Below are positions 9,894 through 24,410 of a stretch of DNA of 64,000 bases, piece after piece. Each line of letters opens with the position of its first letter. Position 1 is the first letter of the stretch. Origin of the DNA: Rathayibacter sp. VKM Ac-2879 (GTDB lineage Bacteria; Actinomycetota; Actinomycetes; Actinomycetales; Microbacteriaceae); the NCBI RefSeq assembly GCF_015351245.1, contig NZ_JADKSO010000001.1, positions 930,001 to 994,000 on the forward strand, read 5' to 3'. The position numbers and the translations under genes were made by a program. Under the pieces are notes generated by a model that saw nothing but the letters and a program-made list of their open reading frames with translations, was not told the DNA's origin and did not search any database.

Positions 9894-11408
9894 ATGGCTG
9901 ACTACGTCATCGCTATCGACCAGGGGACCACGTCCTCCCGCGCGATCATCTTCGACAAGAAGGGCTCCATCGTCTCCACCGGACAGAAGGAGCACGAGCA
10001 GATTTTCCCTCGCGCCGGCTGGGTGGAGCACGATCCGATCGAGATCTGGAACAACGTCCGCGAGGTCATCGGCCAGGCGCTGTCCCGAGCCGACCTCACC
10101 CGCCACGACATCGCCTCCGTCGGCATCACCAACCAGCGCGAGACCGCCGTGGTCTGGGACAAGACGACCGGCCAGCCCATCTACAACGCCATCGTCTGGC
10201 AGGACACCCGCACCCAGTCGATCGTCGACCGGCTCGCCGGCGACGAGGGCCCTGACCGCTTCAAGTCGATCGTCGGTCTCCCGCTCGCCACCTACTTCTC
10301 GGGCACCAAGATCGTCTGGATCCTCGAGAACGTCGAGGGAGCGCGCGAGAAGGCCGAGGCGGGCGACCTGCTCTTCGGCACGACGGACACCTGGGTGCTG
10401 TGGAACCTCACCGGAGGAGTCGACGGCGGAGTCCACAAGACCGACGTCACCAACGCCTCCCGTACCCTCTTCCTCGACCTCGAGACCCTCGAATGGCGCG
10501 ACGACATCCTCGAGGCCTTCGGGGTCCCGAAGTCGATGCTGCCAGAGGTGTGCTCCTCGTCCGAGGTCTACGGGCACGTGGAGTCGTCGTCGCTGCTGCG
10601 CGAGGTCCCGATCGCGGGCATCCTGGGCGACCAGCAGGCCGCGACCTTCGGTCAGGCGGCGTTCGATCCGGGCGAGGCGAAGAACACCTACGGCACCGGC
10701 AACTTCCTGATCTTCAACACGGGCACCGAGATCGTGCACTCGAAGAACGGACTGCTGACCACGATCGGCTACAAGCTCGGCGACGGCGAGGTGCACTACG
10801 CGCTCGAAGGCTCGATCGCGGTCTCGGGCTCGCTCATCCAGTGGCTGCGCGACAACCTCGGCCTCATCGGCTCGGCGTCCGAGGTCGAGGCCCTGGCGGC
10901 CACGGTCGAGGACAACGGAGGCGCGTACTTCGTCCCCGCGTTCTCCGGCCTGTTCGCGCCGTACTGGCGCTCGGACGCGCGGGGCGCCCTCGTCGGCCTC
11001 ACGCGATACGTCAACAAGGGCCACATCGCTCGCGCCGCGCTGGAGGCGACTGCCTTCCAGACGCGCGAGGTCCTCGACGCGGTGAACGCCGACTCCGGAG
11101 TGCCGCTGCAGGAGCTCAAGGTCGACGGCGGCATGATCGCCAACACCCTGCTCATGCAGTTCCAGGCCGACATCCTCGGCGTGCCTGTGGTGCGCCCGGT
11201 CGTCGCCGAGACGACCGCGCTCGGAGCGGCCTACGCGGCCGGTCTCGCTGTCGGCTTCTGGGCGAACCTCGAGGACCTGCGCCAGAACTGGCAGGAGGAC
11301 TCGCGCTGGACTCCGCAGATGGACCAGGACGAGGCCGCCCGCCAGTACCGCCTCTGGAAGAAGGCCGTCACGAAGACCTTCGACTGGGTCGACGAGGACG
11401 TGCAGTAG
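9894..11408 (+). CDS. glpK: glycerol kinase
   Basis: A 504-residue FGGY-family kinase with the start [11 protein letters not shown], the substrate region [19 protein letters not shown] and the ATP-domain motifs [12 protein letters not shown] and [19 protein letters not shown]. It phosphorylates glycerol to glycerol 3-phosphate, trapping it after GlpF entry and feeding GlpD. A strong AAGGAG site lies about nine bases before the ATG. Length is usual for the family. A 16-bp terminator stem follows closely. Confidence 0.97.
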
Positions 11409-11421
11409 CAGCCGCGTTCCC

Positions 11422-11465
11422 CGCACGAGGGCCCGCGTACCTGACGGTGCGCGGGCCCTCGTGCG
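11422..11465 (+). terminator. strong terminator after glpK
   Basis: A perfect 16-base inverted repeat, CGCACGAGGGCCCGCG (11422-11437) against 11450-11465, with a 12-base loop, 13 bases past the glpK stop. It isolates the daptide locus that starts 50 bases further on. Confidence 0.85.
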
Positions 11466-11514
11466 TTCCGCGCCAGCTCGTGGCAAGGATGCGACGATCT
11501 GTCACCATATTCGT

Positions 11515-12534
11515 ATGGGAACACTGGAGGGGATGCGGTCGGAGCCAGCGGAAGAGCGCCACGCGGAGGGCGCTCCTCCCGTCTTCGCGCTCGTGGAGGC
11601 ATGGGTCACCGGACGCGAGCTCACGGGTGTCGAGCGCATCGGCTTCGCCGAGCACGAGGTCACCGTCGCGCCGATGATAGACGTCCTTCTCGCTCCGGCA
11701 GGAAGCGCGGCCGGCACCGCATCGCGGGTCATCGAGTACGAGGGGCGCTTCGTCGAGGTCGGCGACGAGATGACGATCGAGGGCCACACACTCGAGCTCC
11801 AGGACTACGCCGCGGCGGGCTTCCTCGAGGTCGTCGGTCCGATGGTGGTCCGCCTCGGCGATACGGCAGGGTGGGAGGCGCTGCTGGAGGACGCCGACCG
11901 CGCCCACTCCGACGGGGAGTTCCCGGCGCACCTCCTCCACCCCGGCGTTCTCCTGGGCGAGCGGAACGCCTTCCTCGCGCGGGCGGCTGGCCGTCCGCGT
12001 GCGCCGCGTCCCGTCTTCGGCGTCGGGGGAGTGCCCCGCCATGCTCCGGAGGGGCCGCCACTCGAGGTGGTCGGGTCGCCCCTCGTCGAGGCCTTCGGCG
12101 GCGTGATCGAGCCCGCCCGGCTCGAGGCCGATGTCGAGGACCGCCCCTGGCTCGGGCGCTACATCGCCGCGACCGAGCTCCTCCGTCGTACCCGCCGCGG
12201 CACGCAGGCCCGCATCAGCGGCGTTAGCGCCTCGCTCCTCGACGACGGACGCGCCGACCGCCCGACACCGATCGATGCCCCATTCCTCAGCGAGGTCGAC
12301 GGCTCGTGGCTGCTCGAAGACCTCGCGACGCGGCGCCGCTTCCGGCTCCAGGAGGATGCGGCGACGATCGTCGAGGCGCTGCACACCTCAAGCGATCACG
12401 ACCTGGCCGCCCGGCGATGGTCGGACGCGTTCGCCCTCAGCCTCGAGGAGGCCGCCGCTCACGTGGCCGCGGTCGCCGCTCGATGGGCGGAGGTCTCGGA
12501 TCCGGCCCTCGCTCCGACGCGGGAGGAGTCGTGA
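11515..12534 (+). CDS. mpaB: daptide accessory protein with C-terminal RRE
   Basis: A 339-residue protein. The first 250 residues match no enzyme family I recognise. Residues about 255-335 form a PqqD-like RiPP recognition element: SEVDGSWLLEDLATRRRFRL (the beta strands), then DAATIVEALHTSS and helices ending in AAHVAAVAARWAEV. In the daptide system of Microbacterium paraoxydans an otherwise unannotated protein with a C-terminal RRE delivers the precursor to the oxidative decarboxylase; this gene fits that role. The ATG at 11515 follows a CATATT string and may be near-leaderless; ATG 11533 sits directly behind GGAGGGG. It overlaps the next gene by four bases (GTGA). Confidence 0.85.
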   Translation: MGTLEGMRSEPAEERHAEGAPPVFALVEAWVTGRELTGVERIGFAEHEVTVAPMIDVLLAPAGSAAGTASRVIEYEGRFVEVGDEMTIEGHTLELQDYAAAGFLEVVGPMVVRLGDTAGWEALLEDADRAHSDGEFPAHLLHPGVLLGERNAFLARAAGRPRAPRPVFGVGGVPRHAPEGPPLEVVGSPLVEAFGGVIEPARLEADVEDRPWLGRYIAATELLRRTRRGTQARISGVSASLLDDGRADRPTPIDAPFLSEVDGSWLLEDLATRRRFRLQEDAATIVEALHTSSDHDLAARRWSDAFALSLEEAAAHVAAVAARWAEVSDPALAPTREES

Positions 12535-13808
12535 CCGGCGTGCCCTCATCCGCGCGCGGACACTCGGTGTGGACGGCCCTGGCACCGGCCGGGAGCACGG
12601 TGTTCCGGGCGGCTTCCGCGCGCGGCGTGCGTGTCACCGGCGCCGACGGCCGCCGCTACCTCTGCGCCGACAGCGGTCTCTGGAACGTGCCGCTCGGGTA
12701 CGGCAATCCCGTCATCGCCGACGCGGTAGCTCGTGCGCTCCACGACTCCTCCTACCTGCCCGTCTTCCGGTCGAGCCACGTCGGCGCAGAGTCGGCGGCC
12801 TCGGCCCTCCTCGCGCTCGCGGGAGGTCGCTACCGGCGAGTGGTCTTCTCGACCTCGGGAGGTGCGGCGAACGATGCCGCGATGAAGCTCGTCCGTCACT
12901 ACTGGCACCTCCGCGAAGCCCCCCAGCGGCGTCTCGTGATCGGGCTCGAGGGCAGCTACCACGGGCTCACCCACGGCAGCCATGCCCTGAGCGGCGACGC
13001 CCTGCTGCACGACGTCTACGCCCTCGACCGTCGGAGTGTGCGTCACGTCCCGTTCGACGACGGCGGGGAGCGCCTCGAGGCGCTCCTGCGACGGGAGGGC
13101 AGCCGGGTCGGCGCCCTCGTGCTCGAGCCCGTCCTCGGATCGGGGTGCCGAGTCGTCCCTGACGAGTTCCTCCGTCGTGTGCAGGAGCTACGCGAGCAGT
13201 ACGGCTTTCTCCTCGTCGCCGACGAGGTCGCGACGGGGTTCCACCGCACGGGGCCGCTGTTCGCCTCCGAGAGGTGGTCGCCCGCGCCCGATGTGCTCGT
13301 GCTCTCGAAGGCGCTCACCCACGGCAGCTGCGCCGCCGCGGTGCTGCTCGTCGGGGAGTCGATCGTGTCGGTCGCCGATCGCTCGGAAGCCGTCTTCGTG
13401 CACGGCGAGACGCAGGCGGGGACACCGTCCACTTGCGCGGCGATCCTCGCGACACTGGCCGAGTTCGAGCGACGGGAGGCCGGCCTCCTCGCCGCGGGCG
13501 TGGGCGATCAGCTCGATCGCCTCGCCGACCGCCTCCTCCGTTCGCCGCTCGTCACCGAGGTCACCGGTGCGGGGTGCTTCCGCGGCGTGCACCTGCGTCA
13601 TGCCGACGGGTCGGCGTTGTCGGGGAGCGAGGTGACCGCTCTCGTGACGAGCGTCCGCGAGGCCGGAGTCCTCGTGCATCCCGGCCCGTCGGCGATCCAG
13701 CTCGTGCCGGCGTTCGTGTTCGACGACGAGAACATCGGCGAACTCGAGAGCACCCTACTGACGGCCTTCGACCGCCCCGAGCGGGTGCTCGACGGAGGCG
13801 CTCCGTGA
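12531..13808 (+). CDS. mpaD: daptide aminotransferase, class III PLP-dependent
   Basis: A 425-residue fold-type I aminotransferase. STSGGAANDAAMKLVRHYW binds the PLP phosphate, the LLVADEVATGFHRTG segment holds the PLP-pairing Asp, and LSKALTHGS carries the Schiff-base Lys (residue 260). In daptides such an enzyme converts the C-terminal ketone left by oxidative decarboxylation of Thr to an amine. GTG 12531 has an excellent GGGAGGAG at the usual distance and overlaps the accessory gene stop. The next gene overlaps by four bases, giving tight coupling. Confidence 0.9.
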   Translation: MTGVPSSARGHSVWTALAPAGSTVFRAASARGVRVTGADGRRYLCADSGLWNVPLGYGNPVIADAVARALHDSSYLPVFRSSHVGAESAASALLALAGGRYRRVVFSTSGGAANDAAMKLVRHYWHLREAPQRRLVIGLEGSYHGLTHGSHALSGDALLHDVYALDRRSVRHVPFDDGGERLEALLRREGSRVGALVLEPVLGSGCRVVPDEFLRRVQELREQYGFLLVADEVATGFHRTGPLFASERWSPAPDVLVLSKALTHGSCAAAVLLVGESIVSVADRSEAVFVHGETQAGTPSTCAAILATLAEFERREAGLLAAGVGDQLDRLADRLLRSPLVTEVTGAGCFRGVHLRHADGSALSGSEVTALVTSVREAGVLVHPGPSAIQLVPAFVFDDENIGELESTLLTAFDRPERVLDGGAP

Positions 13809-15001
13809 GCGCGGCGGCGCTCTGGTGCCCGACGCGGATCATCGCGGGTCGCGGCATCACGGCGGGCGTGCTCGCCGAGCTGCCGCGGGGCGACCGCAGC
13901 CTCGTCGTCGTCGACGAGCGCCTGGTGGGGCGTGTCGACCCTGTCGGGGGTGCGGTGGCGCTGGAGGCGCGGGCCGAGCTGTCGGTCCTCGAGCGCCTGG
14001 TCGATCGGATCGACGGGCAGCGTCCGGAGGTCGTGGTCGCGCTCGGAGGCGGCTCGATCCTCGACCTGGTCAAGCTCGCGGTCGCCGTGCCTCCCGAACG
14101 GTGGCGAGGCTTCAGTCGGCGACTCGAGGGTGGTCTCGTGCTGACGCGGCGCCCCCTTCGCGAGGCCGCGCCACGGGTCGTCGCCGTTCCGACCACGATC
14201 GGGACCGCCTCCGAAGTCAGCCCGGTCGCATGCGTCACGGCTCGGGGCGGGCACCGGCTCGTGGTCGGAGACGACCTCCGCCCCCATACCGCGGTGGTCG
14301 ACCCGGAGCACCTCGATTCGCTGTCGGCGCGCGCGGTGGGGGAGGGAGCGCTCGAGGCGCTGCTGCGCGTCGCAGGCACCGCCGCCTCGGGCTCGCTCAG
14401 CCCGTTCGCCGTCGACCGCGCCGTCGACCTGGGCCGGAGGATCGTGGCCGCGGGCGACGCAGCGCTGCTCGACGGAGCGGGCGAGGCGCGAGGAACGCTC
14501 GCGCTCGTGAGCGCCGAGACGCGGTATTCGTGGAGCGCGCATCCGGCCGACGCCTTCGCCGCCCGGCACTGGTACCCCGCCAATGAGCTTGCCCACGCGG
14601 CGTCGATCGGCAAGATGGCGGCGACGCTCTTCGTGCTGCCCCGCCTCTGGCGACTCCTCCTGGGGGGCGACGCGCGCCTCGGGTCGGCGGAGGCGCTCCG
14701 GCGATTCTGGCGCGGCGTTCGCCCCGACGCCGCCACCCGTCCCGATCGAGACGTACTCACGCTCGCCGCGCGCTGGGGCATCCCCTCCCCTCCCGCGCTC
14801 GACGCGTCGACGCTCGAGCGCGCCGCTGCGGCGACTCGCCATGTCTGGACGGGGACGGGCGCGGCGCTCGCGGGGTGGGACACGGAGCTCACCGCTGCCG
14901 TCGTCGGCACACGCCAGCCGCCATCAGGCCACGGCGCGGCACCCGTCGCGTCGACCGAGCAGACAGCGGAGGAGGTGAACACATGGACACGAACCGCGTG
15001 A
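13805..15001 (+). CDS. mpaC: daptide oxidative decarboxylase, iron-alcohol-dehydrogenase-like
   Basis: A 398-residue protein of the iron-containing alcohol dehydrogenase/dehydroquinate-synthase fold. The nucleotide site GGGSILDLVKL starts at residue 81 and the PTTIGTASEVSPVACV motif follows. The helix that normally brings metal ligands (DALxHAIE) reads GEGALEALLR at residues 179-188, so the usual Asp and first His are absent. In daptides this enzyme oxidises and decarboxylates the C-terminal Thr of the precursor. GTG 13805 overlaps the aminotransferase stop; its own 3' end overlaps the first precursor gene by 19 bases. Confidence 0.88.
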   Translation: MSAAALWCPTRIIAGRGITAGVLAELPRGDRSLVVVDERLVGRVDPVGGAVALEARAELSVLERLVDRIDGQRPEVVVALGGGSILDLVKLAVAVPPERWRGFSRRLEGGLVLTRRPLREAAPRVVAVPTTIGTASEVSPVACVTARGGHRLVVGDDLRPHTAVVDPEHLDSLSARAVGEGALEALLRVAGTAASGSLSPFAVDRAVDLGRRIVAAGDAALLDGAGEARGTLALVSAETRYSWSAHPADAFAARHWYPANELAHAASIGKMAATLFVLPRLWRLLLGGDARLGSAEALRRFWRGVRPDAATRPDRDVLTLAARWGIPSPPALDASTLERAAAATRHVWTGTGAALAGWDTELTAAVVGTRQPPSGHGAAPVASTEQTAEEVNTWTRTA

Positions 15002-15126
15002 GCTCCGGCGCCGCGCTCGCTTTCGTCGAGCTCGACCCTCTCGATGCGCCGTCGGAGGACTCCTACTGGCAAGGGATGGTCGCCGGAGTCGGCGTCCTGG
15101 GCATCGTGGCGATCGTCGCGACCTGA
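14983..15126 (+). CDS. mpaA1: daptide precursor peptide 1
   Basis: A 47-residue peptide. The leader contains ALAFVELDPLDAP (residues 11-23), the motif shared with the next two small genes. The 24-residue tail after DAP is Gly/Val/Ile-rich and ends in IVAIVAT. The final Thr is the residue that daptide enzymes turn into a dimethylated diamine. GGAGGAGG lies seven bases before the ATG. The gene begins inside the last codons of the decarboxylase gene. There is no Cys in the peptide. Confidence 0.92.
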   Translation: MDTNRVSSGAALAFVELDPLDAPSEDSYWQGMVAGVGVLGIVAIVAT

Positions 15127-15176
15127 CCCGACCCGCACACACGACCACACCGCAGTCACGGATGAAGGAGAACAGC

Positions 15177-15305
15177 ATGACGAACGACACCGGCCTCGCC
15201 TTCGAGAGGCTCGAGGCGATGGACGCTCCGGACGACGGCCTGGACTGGTTCCACGGCTTCTCGATCGGCGTCGGCCTCGGCCTCATCGCGCTCAGCGCGA
15301 CCTGA
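15177..15305 (+). CDS. mpaA2: daptide precursor peptide 2
   Basis: A 42-residue peptide with leader motif GLAFERLEAMDAP (residues 6-18) and a 24-residue hydrophobic tail that begins with acidic and aromatic residues and ends in LIALSAT. AAGGAG stands six bases before the ATG. It differs from precursor 1 in most tail residues yet keeps the AP boundary, the Gly-rich helix and the terminal Ala-Thr. Confidence 0.92.
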   Translation: MTNDTGLAFERLEAMDAPDDGLDWFHGFSIGVGLGLIALSAT

Positions 15306-15385
15306 CCGGCGGCTCGACCGCATGGCCGTGAGGCGGGGCCGGCCAGAGGGCACAGGCTCCGCTCGACCAGGCAGAGGGAGGTGAC

Positions 15386-15508
15386 ATGGACAAGACAGCA
15401 CTCGCCTTCGACGAACTCGACGCGCTCGCCGCACCACTGGAGTGGTGGCAGACCGCGGGATACGTGATCGCCGTCGCCGGCGGACTCGCCGCGATCGCCG
15501 CGACCTGA
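15386..15508 (+). CDS. mpaA3: daptide precursor peptide 3
   Basis: A 40-residue peptide with leader motif ALAFDELDALAAP (residues 5-17) and a 23-residue tail starting LEWWQT and ending in LAAIAAT. GGGAGG lies four to five bases before the ATG. Each of the three peptides has its own strong ribosome site, consistent with high and equal translation. None contains Cys, so Cys-derived thiazolines are excluded. Confidence 0.92.
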   Translation: MDKTALAFDELDALAAPLEWWQTAGYVIAVAGGLAAIAAT

Positions 15509-15519
15509 CGATCCGCCTC

Positions 15520-15557
15520 GTCGGGGTCGAGCGGGCTGTGACCCGCTCGGCCCCGAT
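15520..15557 (+). terminator. intercistronic hairpin after the precursor genes
   Basis: A stem of about 16 pairs: CGGGGTCGAGCGGG (15522-15535) with CCCGCTCGGCCCCG (15542-15555), one T/G wobble, extended outward by a T-A and a G-T pair, with a six-base loop. It lies between precursor 3 and the methyltransferase gene. Such stems in peptide clusters often cause partial termination or protect the upstream message, raising precursor over enzyme. Confidence 0.7.
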
Positions 15558-15607
15558 CGGGCCTCCTCCGCGATCCTCCTTCCCCGTCTCGCCCAGAAAG
15601 GAACCTC

Positions 15608-16420
15608 GTGACCGACTCCGCTTCGCCGCCGGTTCCGGTCGTCGGCGTGCCGACCGTCGAGCTGACGCAGCGTTCCCACGCCCTCCTGCGCTCTCGTCGC
15701 GTCGACCGCGTGCGCCTCGAGCCGCTGTACGGCCCGCGCGGCTCGGAGGCGTATGCCGCCCTGACCGCAGGCGACCGCTCCGAGGTTCGCGAGATCATCG
15801 CGATCGCGCGTCGGGTGTCGGGGCGGATCCTCGAGCTCGCGGCCGGGGCGGGCCGCCTGACGGTTCCCCTCCTCGCGCTCGGCCGACCGGTTGTCGCCGT
15901 CGACTCCTCGGCGACGATGCTCGCGCAGCTTCGCCGCGCGGTGCCGGCTCGGCTGGCGGGCCGTCTCCGGACCGTGCTCGCCGACATGACGACCCCCGTG
16001 GAGGGAGAGGCCTTCGGTCTCGTCGTGCTCGGAGCGACCTCCATCACCCTCCTCGACCAGCAGGGGCGCGAGGCGCTGTACGAGGCCGTCGCGCGAAGTG
16101 CGGCGCCCGGCGCGCGCTTCCTCCTCTCGGTCGCGGAGGAGGACGCGCGATCTCCGCAGACGATCCCCGACGAGCCGGACGGTGCCGTGCTCTCGTCCGA
16201 GATCCGCGGAGACCGGCGCCTCGTCAACATCGTGCTCCCCGCCGACGCCGACGGTGCCGTGACGGTGCTCGTCAGCTCCGTGACCCGCCTCGACCGGCCG
16301 GCGCTCGTCGCCGAGCTCCTCGCCCACCGCTTCGAGATCGTCGGCGTGACGCCCGTGCGTCTCGGCGGAGGGAGAAGCACCGGTGTCGTCCTCGTGGAAG
16401 CCGCATGCCCGACTCGGTGA
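15608..16420 (+). CDS. mpaM: daptide SAM-dependent methyltransferase
   Basis: A 270-residue class I methyltransferase with motif I ILELAAGAGRLTVPLL (the SAM-binding glycines near residues 80-82), the acidic VVAVDSSATML strand end and the VVLGATSITLLD motif. In daptides an N-methyltransferase adds two methyl groups to the new C-terminal amine. GTG 15608 is preceded by AAAGGAA at a good distance. It overlaps the YcaO gene by 16 bases. Confidence 0.88.
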   Translation: MTDSASPPVPVVGVPTVELTQRSHALLRSRRVDRVRLEPLYGPRGSEAYAALTAGDRSEVREIIAIARRVSGRILELAAGAGRLTVPLLALGRPVVAVDSSATMLAQLRRAVPARLAGRLRTVLADMTTPVEGEAFGLVVLGATSITLLDQQGREALYEAVARSAAPGARFLLSVAEEDARSPQTIPDEPDGAVLSSEIRGDRRLVNIVLPADADGAVTVLVSSVTRLDRPALVAELLAHRFEIVGVTPVRLGGGRSTGVVLVEAACPTR

Positions 16421-17517
16421 GGACCCTCGACCCGCTGACGGGCATCGCCGAGGCGGTCAGCGTCCTGCCGCCACGGTCCGAGACTCCGCTCTGGCAGGTC
16501 GTCGTGCAGCTGAAGCGCCCGACGGCGCCCACCGTGGCGGGTTCGCTCGGGCTCGTGGGCGCCTCCGACCTCACCCGGCGGGGCGCGATGCGTCGCGCCG
16601 CAGGCGAGGCCGTCGAACGCTTCGCGCTCCTGCCACGACCGGATGAGACGGGCGCGCCACGCGCGACGTCCGGGCTCGAGCTGCTCTACGACGCCGAGCG
16701 CCCGCTCGACGTCGCGGGCGAGGCCACGCCGTCGGGAGCCGCGGCGGGCGGCTCGCACGCGGAGGCGGCGCACGCGGCCGTGCTCGAACTCGTCGAGCGC
16801 GATGCGCTCCTCGTCGCGTGGGGGAGGCAGCTTGCGCTCGCCCGCATCGATCCCTCCCCGTGTCCCGCCGTGGCGCGGGCCGTGCACCGACTCGCCGGGG
16901 CGATGGAGGCGGCGGGCGGCTCGCTCGTCACCGCCGACCTGGCGTGCGAGGTCCCGGGTGTCACGGTCGTCGTCGCAGTCGCCCTCGAAGGGCCGACGGG
17001 CGCCGTCGCCGTGGGCGCGAAGGCCTCGTGCGATCGCGGCAGCGCCGTGCTCGGAGCGGCGCAGGAAGCGATGCAGGCGCTCCACCTCGCCCGGTCCCTC
17101 CGCGCGGCCGGCCGCGCCGACGCCCCGCCCGAGATTCGCACGGAGGAGGACCGCGCGCGATTCTGGGCCTCTGATGCGGGCGTTCCCGCCCTGCGAACGT
17201 GGGTCGACTCCTTCCGCCCTCCCGTCGACGGGCCGCCTCCGCCTGCGGCCGATCCGGCCGAGCTCGGGGATCTGCTCGCGCGGCGAGGGACCCCGGTGCG
17301 CGTCGTCGACCTGACGTGCCGCCTCCCGGCGCCCGCTCGAGAGCTCGGATGGCATGCGGTGAAGGCGGTCGCTCCTGCGCTCCAGCCGTTGCGGATCGAC
17401 GAGACGCGGTCCACGACCTGGCGCGCCGCTCGTCTGGACTCGGCCGAGATCCGCACGCGCTGTCCCAGTGCTCTCGCCGCGGGGGAGGTGTTCGATGTCC
17501 CGCATCCGCTCGTCTGA
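16405..17517 (+). CDS. YcaO-domain protein in the daptide locus
   Basis: A 370-residue YcaO-fold protein. The ATP/Mg motifs are present: GEAVER (E68, E71, R72), LELVERDALLVAW (E128, E131, D133) and QEAMQ (E221, Q224). YcaO enzymes activate peptide amide oxygens with ATP to form azolines, amidines or, with TfuA, thioamides. No E1-like, TfuA or azoline dehydrogenase partner gene is nearby. The C-terminus ends PHPLV, close to the proline-rich tail of azoline-forming YcaOs. It is embedded between the methyltransferase and protease genes, overlapping both. I do not recall YcaO as part of the core daptide set, so its role here is open. Confidence 0.85.
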   Translation: MPDSVRTLDPLTGIAEAVSVLPPRSETPLWQVVVQLKRPTAPTVAGSLGLVGASDLTRRGAMRRAAGEAVERFALLPRPDETGAPRATSGLELLYDAERPLDVAGEATPSGAAAGGSHAEAAHAAVLELVERDALLVAWGRQLALARIDPSPCPAVARAVHRLAGAMEAAGGSLVTADLACEVPGVTVVVAVALEGPTGAVAVGAKASCDRGSAVLGAAQEAMQALHLARSLRAAGRADAPPEIRTEEDRARFWASDAGVPALRTWVDSFRPPVDGPPPPAADPAELGDLLARRGTPVRVVDLTCRLPAPARELGWHAVKAVAPALQPLRIDETRSTTWRAARLDSAEIRTRCPSALAAGEVFDVPHPLV

Positions 17518-19183
17518 GCCTCTCCCCAGCAGCGCCGCGGAGGAGCGACCGCGACTGCGCGATTCCGTCCGGCTGGTCGCGCCCTCGCCGCAGACGGGGG
17601 CCAGCTGGCTCGTGACGCTCGACGACGTTCCCGTTGCGCGCGTCCCGACAGCGACCGCGGAGGTGCTCCGGCTCCTCGACGGCACGCGCCCGATCGCCGA
17701 GGTGCGGCGTCTCAGCGAGGCGCGCCCGGAGGAACTCGACGCCCTCCTCGCGCGGGTGCGAGGCGCGGGTCTCCTCGCGGGGGGCAGGGAGCGCTCGCGT
17801 CGCTGCCCCGTCAGGGTCACTCCGCCGATGACGGTGCAATTCGCGACCGGCCGTCTGACGCCCGCGTTCGCCGCGATCGCGACGCTCCTCCGACGCGCTC
17901 TCCGGCGTCGCGGCGCGCGCCGGGTGGCCGTGGTGGCGCCGGTCGCGCTGGTCGTCGCGGGAATCGTCGCGGCGGCGCTCCAAGCGCCGGGACTCGCCGA
18001 TGTCGTCGATCGCCCAGTGACGGTGCCCTCGCTCGCGGCGGTCGCGGTCGCGCTCGTGCTCGCGACGGCCATCCATGAGCTCGCGCACGGGGTGACGCTG
18101 CATCTCGCGGGAGGTATCGCCCGTCGCGCCGGTTTCATGGTCTTCTACCTCACCCCGGCCTTCTTCGTCGACGTCACCGACAACTGGCGGATCGCGAGTC
18201 GAGGCCGCCGCGCCGCCGTCGCCCTGGCGGGACCTGCCGTGCACGTGGTCCTCGCGTCGGCGTCGGCGGTCGTCGCCCTTGTCGTCGCGCCGGGCGAGGT
18301 GCGGGACGCGGCGCTCACGTTCACGGCCGCCGCGACGGGCATCGCACTGTTCAACCTGCTCCCGTTCGTCCGCTTCGACGGCTACTTCGCGCTCGTGGCC
18401 GCGACCGACACTCCCCGTCTCCGGGAACGATCATTCGAGGCGCTCGACGCCGTGTTGGGAGGAGCGAGAGGAGACCGCCGAGCGTGGCTCCTGCTCCTCG
18501 GAGTGGGCAGCCTGATCACGCCCGCGCTCCTCGTGCTGGCCGCGCTGGACAGGGTGAGACGCTGGACCGACACGACCGGAGTCGTCGGGGCTCTCGTGCT
18601 GGTGGCGCTCGACGCGCTCGTGCTCGTCGTGCTCATCCGCGGCTGTCGGAGGTGGCTTCGCCGACCTGGCGCGAGGGGCCGTCGCTGGGCGCTGCTCGGC
18701 ACGGCCGTCGCGCTCGCGGTCGCGCTCGGTCTGCTCGTGCCCGTGCCGCGCACCGCGGCCGTCGGCTGGTTCGCGACCCCCGAGGGCACACGCCTGGTCA
18801 GCACCGACGCCGCGTCCCTCGCCCGACTCCCGGCCGGCGCGGAGGTGCTGCTCCAGACCCAGGGCCTGCTACACCATCGCGACATCGGCCGGGGAGTCGT
18901 CGGGCCGGCCGGATCGCAGGCTCCCGCGCTGGTGCCGCTCGAGAGCCTCTCGCCGGTGCGCGACCCCACGCTCATTCCGGCGTCCGGGCGTGCACTCGAG
19001 GCGAGCGTCGCGCCTCCCACCCCGAGCGCAGGCGCGGCGCTCGTGCGACTCGGCGGGGACCGCTCCCTCCTCGAGACCGTCCTCGCGCCCGCGTTCACCG
19101 TCTTCGGCGCGCTCGTGCCCGTCCCGGACGCGACTCCTCAGACCATCGTGACCCACCCCGACGACCGTGACGAGAGCAGGTAG
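17495..19183 (+). CDS. mpaP: daptide M50 intramembrane metalloprotease with RRE-like N-terminus
   Basis: A 562-residue protein starting at ATG 17495 (GGGGGAGG six bases upstream). Residues about 15-90 look like a PqqD/RRE-type winged helix (WLVTLDDVPVARV, then EVLRLLDGTRPIAEVRRL). The membrane part has the zinc motif HELAHG (H194, E195, H198) and the second motif LLPFVRFDGYFAL (D295), both typical of site-2-type M50 proteases. A further helix (around 400-425) and an Ala/Val-rich outer domain end the protein. It most likely removes the leader after the DAP/AAP boundary and couples maturation to export. Confidence 0.88.
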   Translation: MSRIRSSEPLPSSAAEERPRLRDSVRLVAPSPQTGASWLVTLDDVPVARVPTATAEVLRLLDGTRPIAEVRRLSEARPEELDALLARVRGAGLLAGGRERSRRCPVRVTPPMTVQFATGRLTPAFAAIATLLRRALRRRGARRVAVVAPVALVVAGIVAAALQAPGLADVVDRPVTVPSLAAVAVALVLATAIHELAHGVTLHLAGGIARRAGFMVFYLTPAFFVDVTDNWRIASRGRRAAVALAGPAVHVVLASASAVVALVVAPGEVRDAALTFTAAATGIALFNLLPFVRFDGYFALVAATDTPRLRERSFEALDAVLGGARGDRRAWLLLLGVGSLITPALLVLAALDRVRRWTDTTGVVGALVLVALDALVLVVLIRGCRRWLRRPGARGRRWALLGTAVALAVALGLLVPVPRTAAVGWFATPEGTRLVSTDAASLARLPAGAEVLLQTQGLLHHRDIGRGVVGPAGSQAPALVPLESLSPVRDPTLIPASGRALEASVAPPTPSAGAALVRLGGDRSLLETVLAPAFTVFGALVPVPDATPQTIVTHPDDRDESR

Positions 19184-19189
19184 ACAGCC

Positions 19190-19915
19190 ATGACCCATGC
19201 CATCCGCTTCGACCACTTCACCAAGGCCTATCGAGGCCGGGAGGTGGTGTCCGGTCTGGATTTCGCGGTGCAGCCGGGAACCATCGTCGGACTCCTCGGA
19301 CCCAACGGAGCAGGCAAGAGCACGGCCCTCAAGGGCCTCGTGGGCCTGCTGCGACCGAGCAGTGGGGCGGTGCTGGTCGAGGGAAGGCGGTTCCAGGATC
19401 TCGAGAACCCGGCGTCGGTCGTCGGCGTCCACATGGACGGCTTCGGCTTCGAAGGGAGGATAACCGCGCGGCGACACCTCCAGATCTGCGCCCTCGCCGC
19501 GGGCGCTCCCGGCTCCCGTGTGCAGGAGGTGCTCGACGAGGTGGACCTCGCGGCGCACGCCACGCTGCGGGTCAAGCACTTCTCGACGGGAATGCGGCAG
19601 CGGCTCGGCCTGGCCGCCGCGCTCCTCGGCCGACCGCGGATCCTCGTGCTCGACGAGCCGGCGAACGGCCTCGATCCCGAGGGCATCCGCTGGCTCCGAC
19701 GGTTCCTGAAGTCCTTCGCCCGTGAGGGAGGAGCGGTGCTGGTGTCCAGTCATCAGCTCGCGGAGCTCGCGCAGACCGTCGACGAGGTCGTGGTGCTGCG
19801 TCATCGCCTGCTCTACTCTGGGCCGCTCGACGAGCTGCTCGGCTCGAGCGACGCCTCCCTCGAGGAGCGCTACTTCGACCTCGTCGACTCGGCGGTCTCG
19901 GGGGAGGCGCGGTGA
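19190..19915 (+). CDS. ABC transporter ATPase, daptide export or immunity
   Basis: A 241-residue ATPase with Walker A LLGPNGAGKSTALK, signature FSTGMRQRLGLAAALL and Walker B ILVLDEPANGLDPEG, followed by the switch His in SSHQLAEL. It is of the type that energises peptide export or bacteriocin self-protection (BcrA-like). It starts seven bases after the protease stop and overlaps the first permease gene by four bases (GTGA). Confidence 0.88.
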   Translation: MTHAIRFDHFTKAYRGREVVSGLDFAVQPGTIVGLLGPNGAGKSTALKGLVGLLRPSSGAVLVEGRRFQDLENPASVVGVHMDGFGFEGRITARRHLQICALAAGAPGSRVQEVLDEVDLAAHATLRVKHFSTGMRQRLGLAAALLGRPRILVLDEPANGLDPEGIRWLRRFLKSFAREGGAVLVSSHQLAELAQTVDEVVVLRHRLLYSGPLDELLGSSDASLEERYFDLVDSAVSGEAR

Positions 19916-20622
19916 GCGCCGCGATCCGGGCGGAGGTGCTGCGCGCCGTCAGCGGCTCGGCGGGCTGGGCGGTGGCCGCCTATGCGGTGCTCGTGCCGTT
20001 CATGCTGCTGATCGTGGCGCCGGGAGGCTCGGCCGCGTCCTCGCCGACCCTCGCGGTCTACTCCGCGTGCGCCGCCTCCTTCGTTGCCGCGATGTTCCTC
20101 GGGAGCTACGGGGTCACCCGCGAGTACTACGACGGCTCTATCGGGCGCGCGCTGGTGCTCACGCGCACACGCGAGCTGCTCGTCGCGAAAGCGGTCGCGG
20201 CGGCGCTCGTGTCCTTCGTCCTCGGCGTGATCGCCTCGGTCGTCTGGCTGGGGCCGACCGCGATCGTCCTCGGCTCGAACGGCGTCGAGTTCGCGCCCGG
20301 CGCCGAGCTCGTGCCGGTCGCGATCGGCTCGGCGGCGGCGTCGACGGTGGGCGGTGTGCTCGGTTCGATGATCGGCTGGCTCACCCGCAACTACTACGTC
20401 GCCAGCGCGATCGTCCTCGGGATCCCGTTCGCGGTCGAGCTCCCGCTCCTGTCCTCCGCTCCCGAGATCGAGCGGTTCCTGCCCTCCGGTGCACTCGCGG
20501 CGCTCGGGGCCCCTCAGGGACTCGGCTTGCTCCCTCCCGTCGCCGCTGCCGGAGTCGCCGCGGCCTGGTGCCTGCTCGCGGGTGCTGCGGCCTGGGCGAC
20601 GATGCGAGGGAGGGAAGCGTGA
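19912..20622 (+). CDS. ABC transporter permease 1 of the daptide locus
   Basis: A 236-residue, GTG-started membrane protein with about six hydrophobic segments, including a first helix (VAAYAVLVPFMLLIVA) and a later LGVIASVVWLGPTAIVL. The segment VTREYYDGSIGRALVLTRTR is the ABC-2 cytoplasmic coupling loop. It should pair with the ATPase and the second permease. Four-base overlaps with both neighbours point to one translation unit. Confidence 0.82.
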   Translation: MSAAIRAEVLRAVSGSAGWAVAAYAVLVPFMLLIVAPGGSAASSPTLAVYSACAASFVAAMFLGSYGVTREYYDGSIGRALVLTRTRELLVAKAVAAALVSFVLGVIASVVWLGPTAIVLGSNGVEFAPGAELVPVAIGSAAASTVGGVLGSMIGWLTRNYYVASAIVLGIPFAVELPLLSSAPEIERFLPSGALAALGAPQGLGLLPPVAAAGVAAAWCLLAGAAAWATMRGREA

Positions 20623-21359
20623 TCGCGAGCGCGCTGCGCACCGAGGCCCTGCGTCTGCGCTCGGATCGACCTCTCGCGGGCCTCGCGCTCGTCGCCCTCG
20701 TGCTTGGGCTGAGCATCCTGCTCGCGGTGCCCGAGAATGTGCGGGAGGCGCCTGCCTCGGCGCGGTCGGCCCTCTTCGATGCCCTCGCGCCGTCCCTGCT
20801 GACCACTGCCGCGGTCGTTGCCGGACTGTATGGCGCGTTCCGATACACCTCCGATCTCGAACGGGGCGTGCTGGCCCGGCAGCTCGGCTTCGTGGGGCGC
20901 CTTCCGCTCCTGTGCGCCCGCGCCGTGATGGCGGCGATCGGAGGCGCGCTGCTCGCCGCGGTGTCCTCCGTGGCCGCGGTGCTCGCCTTCCGTGCGGTCG
21001 CGGCAAGCGACGTCGGGGTGCTTGAGCTCCTTCCGGCGGGCGTCCTCGTCGGCGTCAGCGCTGCGCTCTGGGGTCTCGCGGTCGGCGTCGTGATCGGCCG
21101 GCACGTGCCTGCGCTCGTCGCGGTGTCGGGCGTCCTCGCCGCGTCCCTTCCGCTGTCGGAGTGGCAACCCGACGCACGCCTCGCCACGCCTCTCGGAGCG
21201 TGGCTCGCATCCGTCGCCTACGGCGGCGACCGGAGCGCCGATCTCGGCCTAGCTCTCGCGGCCGGGGTCCTCTGGCTGATCGTGGCGGCCGTTCTGGCCG
21301 TGGTGGTCGTGCTGCGGCGAGACATCGTCTCACCGCTCAGCGCCACCTCGCCCAGATGA
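20619..21359 (+). CDS. ABC transporter permease 2 of the daptide locus
   Basis: A 246-residue membrane protein beginning at GTG 20619, which overlaps the preceding stop (GTGA). It has a first helix (LAGLALVALVLGLSILLAV), then the coupling-loop-like FRYTSDLERGVLARQLGFVGR, and four to five further helices ending in LWLIVAAVLAVVVVLRR. It resembles permease 1 in layout, giving a heterodimeric exporter of the cluster. Confidence 0.8.
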   Translation: MIASALRTEALRLRSDRPLAGLALVALVLGLSILLAVPENVREAPASARSALFDALAPSLLTTAAVVAGLYGAFRYTSDLERGVLARQLGFVGRLPLLCARAVMAAIGGALLAAVSSVAAVLAFRAVAASDVGVLELLPAGVLVGVSAALWGLAVGVVIGRHVPALVAVSGVLAASLPLSEWQPDARLATPLGAWLASVAYGGDRSADLGLALAAGVLWLIVAAVLAVVVVLRRDIVSPLSATSPR

Positions 21360-21463: not shown

Positions 21464-21679
21464 ATGATCGACGTCGAGAACGGACCGACGGCACCGGGCG
21501 AGATCGAGCCGGAGCGACGTCGGCGGCGCTGGGCGAACCTCCTCCTTGCCGCCTTCATCGCCCTCGGCGGGGTCCTGTCTGTCACCGGTCCCAGCGTCAG
21601 CGGCTACGGAGTCACGGCTGCCGTGATCTGCGGGGTGTGCGCTCTCGTCGCTCTCGTCGCAGCGCTGCGCGGGCGCTAA
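21464..21679 (+). CDS. small two-helix membrane protein
   Basis: A 71-residue protein with a charged N-terminus (EPERRRRRW), then two hydrophobic segments (LLLAAFIALGGVLSVTG and TAAVICGVCALVALVAAL). GGAGGGAG lies nine bases before the ATG. Nothing identifies its function. It follows the daptide exporter after a hairpin, so it could be a self-protection protein, but it may equally be unrelated. Confidence 0.6.
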   Translation: MIDVENGPTAPGEIEPERRRRRWANLLLAAFIALGGVLSVTGPSVSGYGVTAAVICGVCALVALVAALRGR

Positions 21680-21742: not shown

Positions 21743-21793
21743 GGCGCTGTGCCTCAGACCGGCGCTGTGCCTTAGACGGGCGCTGTGCCTCAG
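21743..21793. repeat. 18-base tandem repeat, about three copies
   Basis: GGCGCTGTGCCTCAGACC-type units begin at 21743, 21761 and 21779, with one or two differences between copies; the third runs into the stop codon of the HAD gene. No function is evident. Confidence 0.8.
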
Positions 21794-22500
21794 GGGTGGA
21801 GGGCGTCCAGGGAGGCGATGCGCCGGACGCCGAGAGCGAGAGCCTCGGCGGGCAGCTCGCGTCCGTGCTCGGGCCCGCCTGCCCGGTCGAGCCAGATGCC
21901 GCGCAGACCGGCCGCCGCAGCGCCCATCGCATCCGTGGCGAGCCGATCGCCGACGTAGAGCGCGTCGGAGGCGGCGACCCCGAATCGCTCGCATGCAAGC
22001 GTGAAGATGCGCGGATCGGGCTTCGTCAGACCGACGTCTCCGGAGGCGACGACGTGCTCGACTCGCCCGGCAAGCCCGACGCGCTCGATCTTGCCCAGCT
22101 GAAAATCGAGCTCGCCGTTCGTGATGATCCCGATCTGCACGCCGGACGCCCGGAACCGGTCGAGCGCGGGAAGGGCGTCGTCGTGAAGCGTCCACGCCTC
22201 GACGTAATGCTCGAGGTACGCGGCGAACCACTCGCTCGCCTCCTCCGGGGAGAGCTCGATTCCGGCCCCGGCCGCGAAGGCGCTCGCGCGGGCGCGGCGC
22301 TGACCCTCGTAGTCGAGCTCACCCGCGAGGTAGCGGTGGTAGTGCTCCTCCTCGAGGAGGTGCCAGCGGCGCTGGACCTCGAGCGGATCGGCCGCGTACG
22401 CCTCCCCGAGCGTGGCCGCGTGCGCGACGATGCCCTCGCGCACGGCGCGGGCGTGCGCGAAGAGGGTGTCGTCGAGGTCGAAGAGCGCGAGCCGCAGCAC
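21790..22500 (-). CDS. HAD-family phosphohydrolase
   Basis: A 236-residue HAD hydrolase with the four motifs in order: FDLDDT near the N-terminus, TNGELDFQ, LTKPDPRIF and YVGDRLATD. The helical cap inserted after motif I makes it a subclass I enzyme like YjjG or other small-molecule phosphatases. Its substrate cannot be told from the sequence. It starts at GTG 22500, seven bases after the trpS stop, without a clear ribosome site, so it is probably translated by coupling to trpS. Confidence 0.85.
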   Translation of the reverse strand: MLRLALFDLDDTLFAHARAVREGIVAHAATLGEAYAADPLEVQRRWHLLEEEHYHRYLAGELDYEGQRRARASAFAAGAGIELSPEEASEWFAAYLEHYVEAWTLHDDALPALDRFRASGVQIGIITNGELDFQLGKIERVGLAGRVEHVVASGDVGLTKPDPRIFTLACERFGVAASDALYVGDRLATDAMGAAAAGLRGIWLDRAGGPEHGRELPAEALALGVRRIASLDALHP

Positions 22501-22507
22501 GGCGGGC

Positions 22508-24410
<1,903 letters not shown>

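What the first reader, a model, noticed from the sequence alone, without database searches (positions are those of the whole stretch)
11515..21359. A complete daptide-type RiPP locus
Twelve closely packed genes match the published daptide scheme: an accessory protein with a C-terminal RRE, class III aminotransferase, iron-ADH-like decarboxylase, methyltransferase, M50 protease, exporter, and three precursors ending in Ala-Thr. From the sequence: motifs, overlaps and strong ribosome sites. From literature: daptide enzymes convert the C-terminal Thr to (S)-N2,N2-dimethyl-1,2-propanediamine. The inference is that this strain makes three hydrophobic peptides with two positive ends.
Basis: partly seen in the sequence, partly recalled or inferred. 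Interest (0 to 1): 0.85.

Follow-up and report, generated by a model that had tools for sequence, protein, structure and literature searches.

The report
Daptide gene cluster with a YcaO

Summary
The daptide locus is real. NCBIfam daptide models match the RRE accessory protein, aminotransferase, methyltransferase and all three precursors above cut-off; decarboxylase (233.5/300 bits) and protease (290.1/300) match below theirs. Each precursor matches a different Mpa family (MpaA1, MpaA2, MpaA3) best or above cut-off.

The finding's text omits one gene: an intact YcaO (16405-17517). Reconstituted daptide YcaOs turn the monomethyl-diamine intermediate into a C-terminal dimethylimidazoline (Diz; PMC12338566).

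New here: (1) 14 of 14 complete YcaO tails from the window and its relatives end PxPx[V/I]; 2 of 2 from a large-genome genus end PxPxP. (2) The kinase-trpS interval holds a same-way YcaO+ cluster in 2 of 15 genus genomes (plus the window), a reversed YcaO-less one of another lineage in 3, a deletion remnant in 1, none in 9. (3) The A2 core (92-100%) is more conserved than all eight cluster proteins compared, in 10 of 10 pairs. (4) A 71-aa two-helix protein past the stated end may belong.

All chemistry is inferred.

The parts
11515..12534 (+). DapB: accessory protein with RRE
   Evidence: NF041823 169.7 bits, cut-off 150
12531..13808 (+). DapD: class III aminotransferase
   Evidence: NF041821 526.4/450; PF00202
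13805..15001 (+). DapC: iron-ADH-type oxidative decarboxylase
   Evidence: NF041822 233.5/300, best match but below cut-off; PF00465 75.5/31.3
14983..15126 (+). precursor A1, core SEDSYWQGMVAGVGVLGIVAIVAT (predicted cut after Pro)
   Evidence: NF041805 40.1/40, NF041808 44.6/25
15177..15305 (+). precursor A2, core DDGLDWFHGFSIGVGLGLIALSAT (predicted cut after Pro)
   Evidence: NF041806 46.7/40
15386..15508 (+). precursor A3, core LEWWQTAGYVIAVAGGLAAIAAT (predicted cut after Pro)
   Evidence: NF041807 77.9/40
15515..15562 (+). hairpin after the last precursor
   Evidence: fold of 15509-15607: -47.7 kcal/mol, z -3.39; predicted at this place in 17 of 17 loci examined
15608..16420 (+). DapM: N-methyltransferase
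   Evidence: NF041820 198.4/175
16405..17517 (+). DapY: YcaO, predicted imidazoline-forming cyclodehydratase
   Evidence: PF02624 93.6/25.7; profile and fold match solved YcaOs
17495..19183 (+). DapP: RRE-M50 leader protease
   Evidence: NF041824 290.1/300, just below cut-off
19190..19915 (+). DapT1: ABC ATPase
   Evidence: PF00005 97 bits
19912..20622 (+). DapT2: probable ABC permease
   Evidence: no family match; homologue in the same place in related clusters
20619..21359 (+). DapT3: probable ABC permease
   Evidence: no family match above cut-off; homologue in the same place in related clusters
21464..21679 (+). gene X: 71-aa, two-helix membrane protein, candidate 13th gene, possibly immunity
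   Evidence: three matches under E 1e-5 in 15 genus genomes, all at this site
9894..11408 (+). left flank of the site: FGGY carbohydrate kinase (probably glpK)
   Evidence: PF00370, PF02782; matched in 15 of 15 genus genomes
21790..23533 (-). right flank of the site: HAD-like gene (named by eye) and trpS
   Evidence: PF00579; trpS stretch matched in 15 of 15 genus genomes

Best explanation
A YcaO-bearing daptide cluster. Leaders (LAF..L...AP) are bound by the RRE domains of DapB and DapP. DapB with DapC oxidatively decarboxylates the C-terminal Thr to aminoacetone; DapD aminates it; DapM adds one methyl; DapY then uses ATP to close that amine onto the carbonyl of the preceding Ala, giving 3,4-dimethylimidazoline (Diz). 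A part may escape to the dimethyl form (Dmp). DapP cuts after the conserved Pro and DapT1-T3 export three hydrophobic peptides that probably act together on membranes. Gene X may protect the producer. The cluster sits at a chromosomal site where daptide clusters of different lineage have replaced one another. Shown here: gene content, families, intact motifs, site comparison. Inferred from characterised relatives: every chemical step, cleavage, export and activity.
For: NCBIfam and Pfam matches. YcaO intact, with family residues kept and YcaO fold: Foldseek best 4v1v E 1.3e-9 (TMq 0.64) and 6ci7 E 7.4e-9. YcaO lies between M and P in 10 of the 29 compared clusters, window included. Diz chemistry of daptide YcaOs: PMC12338566. 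Site: kinase 98/98/98% but aminotransferase 68/67/49% identical in L037/L043/L041; reversed YcaO-less clusters form a separate clade; remnant in G407.
Against: No product was measured. DapC and DapP fall below the NCBIfam cut-offs. DapY lacks the third Pro of the PxPxP motif reported for TfDapY and SaDapY, and a stretch near residues 83-106 is short and modelled with low confidence. The fold matches have rmsd of 5.5 A or more. In S. azureus one of four peptides ended as Dmp despite a YcaO, and another gave Mmp and Dmp besides Diz.
Confidence: 0.75

Rival explanations
1. Plain daptide: all three peptides end in Dmp, and the YcaO is inactive, unexpressed or outcompeted by DapM.
For: Precursors belong to the MpaA1-A3 families, whose M. 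paraoxydans members end in Dmp (PMC10036551). DapY tail departs from PxPxP. One S. azureus peptide stays Dmp.
Against: The YcaO reading frame is intact, its invariant residues are kept and it is present in all five YcaO+ Rathayibacter-type clusters with its tail conserved, which suggests selection for function.
Confidence: 0.17
2. The YcaO does something else, such as thioamide or azoline formation inside the core.
For: YcaOs are versatile; some daptide-associated YcaOs are azoline-forming types tied to thiopeptides (PMC12338566).
Against: No Cys in the three cores; the C-terminal Thr is the shared feature; the YcaO lies inside the daptide operon between M and P.
Confidence: 0.05
3. For the site: the clusters were inherited vertically and only evolve fast, or one cluster was inverted in place.
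For: Same site in related species; the occupied-or-not state needs only 3 changes on the flank tree.
Against: Reversed clusters form their own clade on a branch of 1.04, while the same-way ones group with Microbacterium-type clusters (quick method); kinase 98% but aminotransferase 68/67/49% in the same three loci; G123 (reversed) sits among same-way genomes on the flank tree, though weakly (62/97).
Confidence: 0.12

Closest known systems
mpa daptide cluster, Microbacterium paraoxydans DSM 15019 (PMC10036551)
   Same: DapB, C, D, M, P and transporter genes; three precursors of the MpaA1, A2 and A3 families
   Different: mpa was picked among clusters with primary enzymes only; the window has a YcaO between M and P. 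The mpa sequences themselves were not compared here.
saDap (Streptomyces azureus) and tfDap (Thermobifida fusca), YcaO-bearing daptide clusters that make Diz (PMC12338566)
   Same: daptide core enzymes plus a YcaO
   Different: TfDapY and SaDapY are reported to hold PxPxP, here PxPxV; tfDap also has LanKC and luciferase-like genes, not seen here. Their sequences were not at hand for a direct comparison.
Cluster of Rathayibacter sp. VKM Ac-2857 (L001, L037)
   Same: same gene order, same site, same orientation, YcaO+, A2 core 96% identical
   Different: cluster proteins only 54-76% identical, flanking kinase 98%

Membership tests
Daptide | RRE accessory protein DapB | tested here: met
   NF041823 169.7/150
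Daptide | oxidative decarboxylase of the PF00465 type | tested here: met
   PF00465 75.5/31.3; but daptide model NF041822 233.5, below its cut-off of 300
Daptide | class III aminotransferase and N-methyltransferase | tested here: met
   NF041821 526.4/450, NF041820 198.4/175
Daptide | RRE-linked M50 protease | tested here: inconclusive
   NF041824 290.1/300 and PF02163 24.1/27.2, both just below cut-off; best NCBIfam match is the daptide protease
Daptide | precursors with leader motif and C-terminal Thr | tested here: met
   three precursors, NF041808 44.6, 46.1, 49.1 against 25; all end in Thr
Daptide | C-terminus converted to an amine | not testable with these tools
   needs mass spectrometry
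DapY (imidazoline-forming daptide YcaO) | YcaO domain encoded in a daptide cluster | tested here: met
   PF02624 93.6/25.7; position between M and P
DapY (imidazoline-forming daptide YcaO) | PxPxP at the C-terminus (reported for TfDapY and SaDapY, not stated to be class-defining) | tested here: not met
   window ends PHPLV; 14 of 14 complete tails in this set end PxPx[V/I], 2 of 2 from the large-genome genus end PHPLP
DapY (imidazoline-forming daptide YcaO) | same sequence-network group as TfDapY and SaDapY | not tested
   their sequences were not at hand
DapY (imidazoline-forming daptide YcaO) | makes Diz or Miz | not testable with these tools
   needs an enzyme assay

The most novel reading that the evidence does not exclude
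The interval between the kinase and HAD genes of Rathayibacter is an exchange site for daptide clusters: ring-making (YcaO+) and amine-making (YcaO-) clusters of separate lineage displace each other there in opposite orientations, leaving small two-helix membrane proteins at the HAD edge that act as immunity, while a nearly fixed peptide A2 is kept by purifying selection. The YcaOs form a sub-type whose last residue is Val or Ile instead of Pro.
Probability: 0.35. Interest if true: 0.66.

Novelty: new member of a known kind. Interest (0 to 1): 0.5.

Why it matters
Daptides are a recent class, and the paper that described the Diz branch leaves open what decides between Diz and Dmp (PMC12338566, Discussion passages). 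Mpa-type precursor trios with a YcaO (Rathayibacter) and without one (the Microbacterium-type sister group) are a natural comparison for that rule. The replaceable site, with a decayed copy and a retained small membrane protein, is a handle on what daptides do for their makers and on self-protection; the word 'immunity' does not occur in the main text of either daptide paper.

Tried and rejected
Rejected: in-place inversion as the cause of the two orientations (tree); a link between YcaO and the penultimate residue (Ala, Ile and Leu all occur before Thr in YcaO+ loci). Not settled: how clusters move; I saw no transposase or integrase by eye but ran no search for one. Led nowhere: single-sequence PDB search with DapY (0 matches); Rfam on the window (0); promoter scan (0 found); papers holding both 'daptide' and 'Rathayibacter' (0); papers on cluster swapping (listing only, none opened). 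Repeats seen in L037 and in several short gaps are absent from the window for the four strings tried.

Weak points: YcaO absence in L058 and L059 is unsure because the fetched stretch ends inside the locus; the cluster tree is a quick one with some long rows; the flank tree has weak inner branches; the G123 edge ORF resembles X only weakly (E 0.003, 0.028); six YcaO+ loci (L006, L008, L009, L038, L040, L066) showed no small two-helix ORF after the last cluster gene.
Full report
OBSERVATION. The twelve genes are there, open, in one direction and tightly packed. NCBIfam daptide models identify the RRE accessory protein (169.7 bits, cut-off 150), aminotransferase (526.4/450), methyltransferase (198.4/175) and precursors A1 (MpaA1, 40.1/40), A2 (MpaA2, 46.7/40) and A3 (MpaA3, 77.9/40). 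Decarboxylase (233.5/300) and protease (290.1/300) have daptide models as best match but stay below cut-off. T2 and T3 have no family match above cut-off. This is not chance.

WHAT THE FINDING LEFT OUT. 16405-17517 is a YcaO: PF02624 93.6 bits, cut-off 25.7. A profile of eight daptide YcaOs, window included, matches solved YcaOs (MJ1094 6pe3, 6ci7, TruD, MusD, LynD), whereas the single sequence finds none. The AlphaFold2 model (pLDDT 83.1, pTM 0.85) matches 4v1v (E 1.3e-9, TMq 0.64, rmsd 8.4) and the M. kandleri YcaO 6ci7 (E 7.4e-9). Residues invariant in the family are kept. Of PMC12338566 I read the abstract, section 5 parts 1 and 2 of 3, and passages: DapY turns the monomethyl intermediate into 3,4-dimethylimidazoline (Diz, -49 Da) and competes with the second methylation that gives Dmp (-17 Da); in S. 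azureus three of four azuritides were Diz, one Dmp. Of PMC10036551 I read the abstract, section 5 part 1 of 3, and passages: the M. paraoxydans cluster was chosen after filtering for clusters with only primary modifying enzymes. So its Dmp product is not the best template here.

MECHANISM. As in Best explanation. In DapC, at two columns aligned to metal ligands of solved iron-type alcohol dehydrogenases (which residues are ligands is recalled), Asp is Glu and His is Arg; both replacements, and a later Lys, are kept in 29 of 29 DapC. PMC12338566 reports lost metal ligands and metal-independent activity for TfDapC. A long hairpin follows the last precursor (15515-15562; the spacer 15509-15607 folds at -47.7 kcal/mol, z -3.39). 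A hairpin was predicted there in 17 of 17 loci examined, though z-scores against mononucleotide shuffles range from -0.6 to -4.4; 15 of 17 have a stem of at least 12 pairs against 4.2% of 1020 random windows, and the other two, L037 and L043, have longer stems with interior breaks. It has no U-run, so I read it as an RNA stabiliser or attenuator that favours precursor over enzyme (inference).

RELATIVES. No genome is held for the window. One genome scan with the aminotransferase gave 16 loci, best Rathayibacter sp. VKM Ac-2857 at 69%; L001 and L037 are that same place, and the seven most distant (L010-L016, 26-31% identity) were not examined. NF041823 was found in 7 of 15 genomes of the genus of G001 (6 over cut-off), 9 of 398 of its family (6), 13 of 396 of an order sample (11), 4 of 396 of a phylum sample (3) and 13 of 199 of a large-genome genus, probably Streptomyces by inference (13). 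These samples overlap. I put 29 loci, the window included, in the cluster tree; L042 was dropped because only B and a weak M match were found, and of the large-genome genus only G802 was used. YcaO is present in 16 of 29. The tree puts the window with L037/L043 (100*), then L038/L040 (100*), all YcaO+, as sister to four YcaO-less clusters including a Microbacterium (100*); YcaO needs at least five changes (quick method).

YCAO TAIL. Complete tails are PHPLV, PHPLI, PHPFI, PHPVI or PQPLV in 14 of 14 (L007 is cut by its contig end) and PHPLP in 2 of 2 from the large-genome genus (G802, G1268). [quoted passage not shown] Here the last Pro gives way to Val or Ile at the same distance from the end.

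THE SITE. The flanks are a MIP channel and a FGGY kinase (probably glpF-glpK) on the left and a HAD-like gene (named by eye) plus trpS on the right. In 15 of 15 genus genomes the kinase and trpS markers lie on one contig, 75 bp to 12.1 kb apart. Between them: same-way YcaO+ clusters in G001 and G406, as in the window; reversed YcaO-less clusters in G123, G390 and G308; in G407 a T3 fragment (48% identity, E 1.5e-33) and an X-like gene, no other daptide protein matching the interval under E 0.01 and no NF041823 in the genome; MFS- and TetR-like ORFs (named by eye) in G178, and no HAD match in G228, whose daptide clusters lie elsewhere; in the other seven, 335-820 bp between kinase and HAD. Protein identity to the window in L037/L043/L041: kinase 98/98/98%, trpS 90/90/90%, HAD 77/79/77%, aminotransferase 68/67/49%, B 53/55/33%. 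The reversed clusters form their own clade on a branch of 1.04, so they are not the same cluster flipped. On a kinase+trpS tree G123 falls among the same-way genomes, weakly (62/97), while G390/G308 stand apart (100/100*). I infer replacement, perhaps by recombination in the conserved flanks. That the host is Rathayibacter is inferred from these flanks.

PEPTIDES MORE CONSERVED THAN ENZYMES. Among five YcaO+ Rathayibacter-type clusters (10 pairs) the A2 core is 92-100% identical, A1 62-100, A3 70-100; B 38-84, C 40-95, D 56-95, M 42-93, Y 45-92, P 36-88, T1 64-90, T2 43-90 (T3 not included; for the split DapM of L040 one piece only). A2 exceeds all eight proteins in 10 of 10 pairs; A1 and A3 do not always.

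GENE X. 21464-21679 encodes 71 aa with two hydrophobic stretches. In 15 genus genomes its matches under E 1e-5 are three, all at this site (G001, G406, G407); a weaker one (E 0.003) is at this site in G123; the other listed matches are weaker still. G390 and G308 also have small ORFs with hydrophobic stretches (seen by eye) at the HAD edge. Five of five Arthrobacter-type clusters (L003, L004, L005, L063, L065) have a 61-aa two-helix ORF just after T3, but six YcaO+ loci, L038 and L040 among them, have none after their last cluster gene. Immunity is a guess from size, place and retention.

VERDICT. Observation confirmed; interpretation partly supported.

Noticed in passing
L040:10167-10991 (minus strand): DapM of this YcaO+ cluster is split over two adjacent open frames; either a broken gene or a sequencing error.
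   Followed up: no
window:11490-11518: DapB has no Shine-Dalgarno-like run; the bases just before its ATG are partly alike in the window, L037 and L043, so a leaderless start is possible.
   Followed up: partly
window:11422-11465: A 20-pair hairpin follows the kinase gene (z -7.31 for 11405-11480). It is matched in five of the 15 related sites (L037, L041, L043, L103, L111) but in none of the seven short gaps.
   Followed up: partly
A2 precursors: window:15177-15305 and relatives: A2 reads FHGF in 5 of 5 YcaO+ Rathayibacter-type clusters, while the four YcaO-less sister clusters (L002, L035, L062, L064) have Arg at that place.
   Followed up: no
L037, between the cluster and the HAD gene: An 86-bp partial copy (88% identity) of the HAD 3' end lies 566 bp inside the right edge of the site, with palindromic repeats between the copies.
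   Followed up: no
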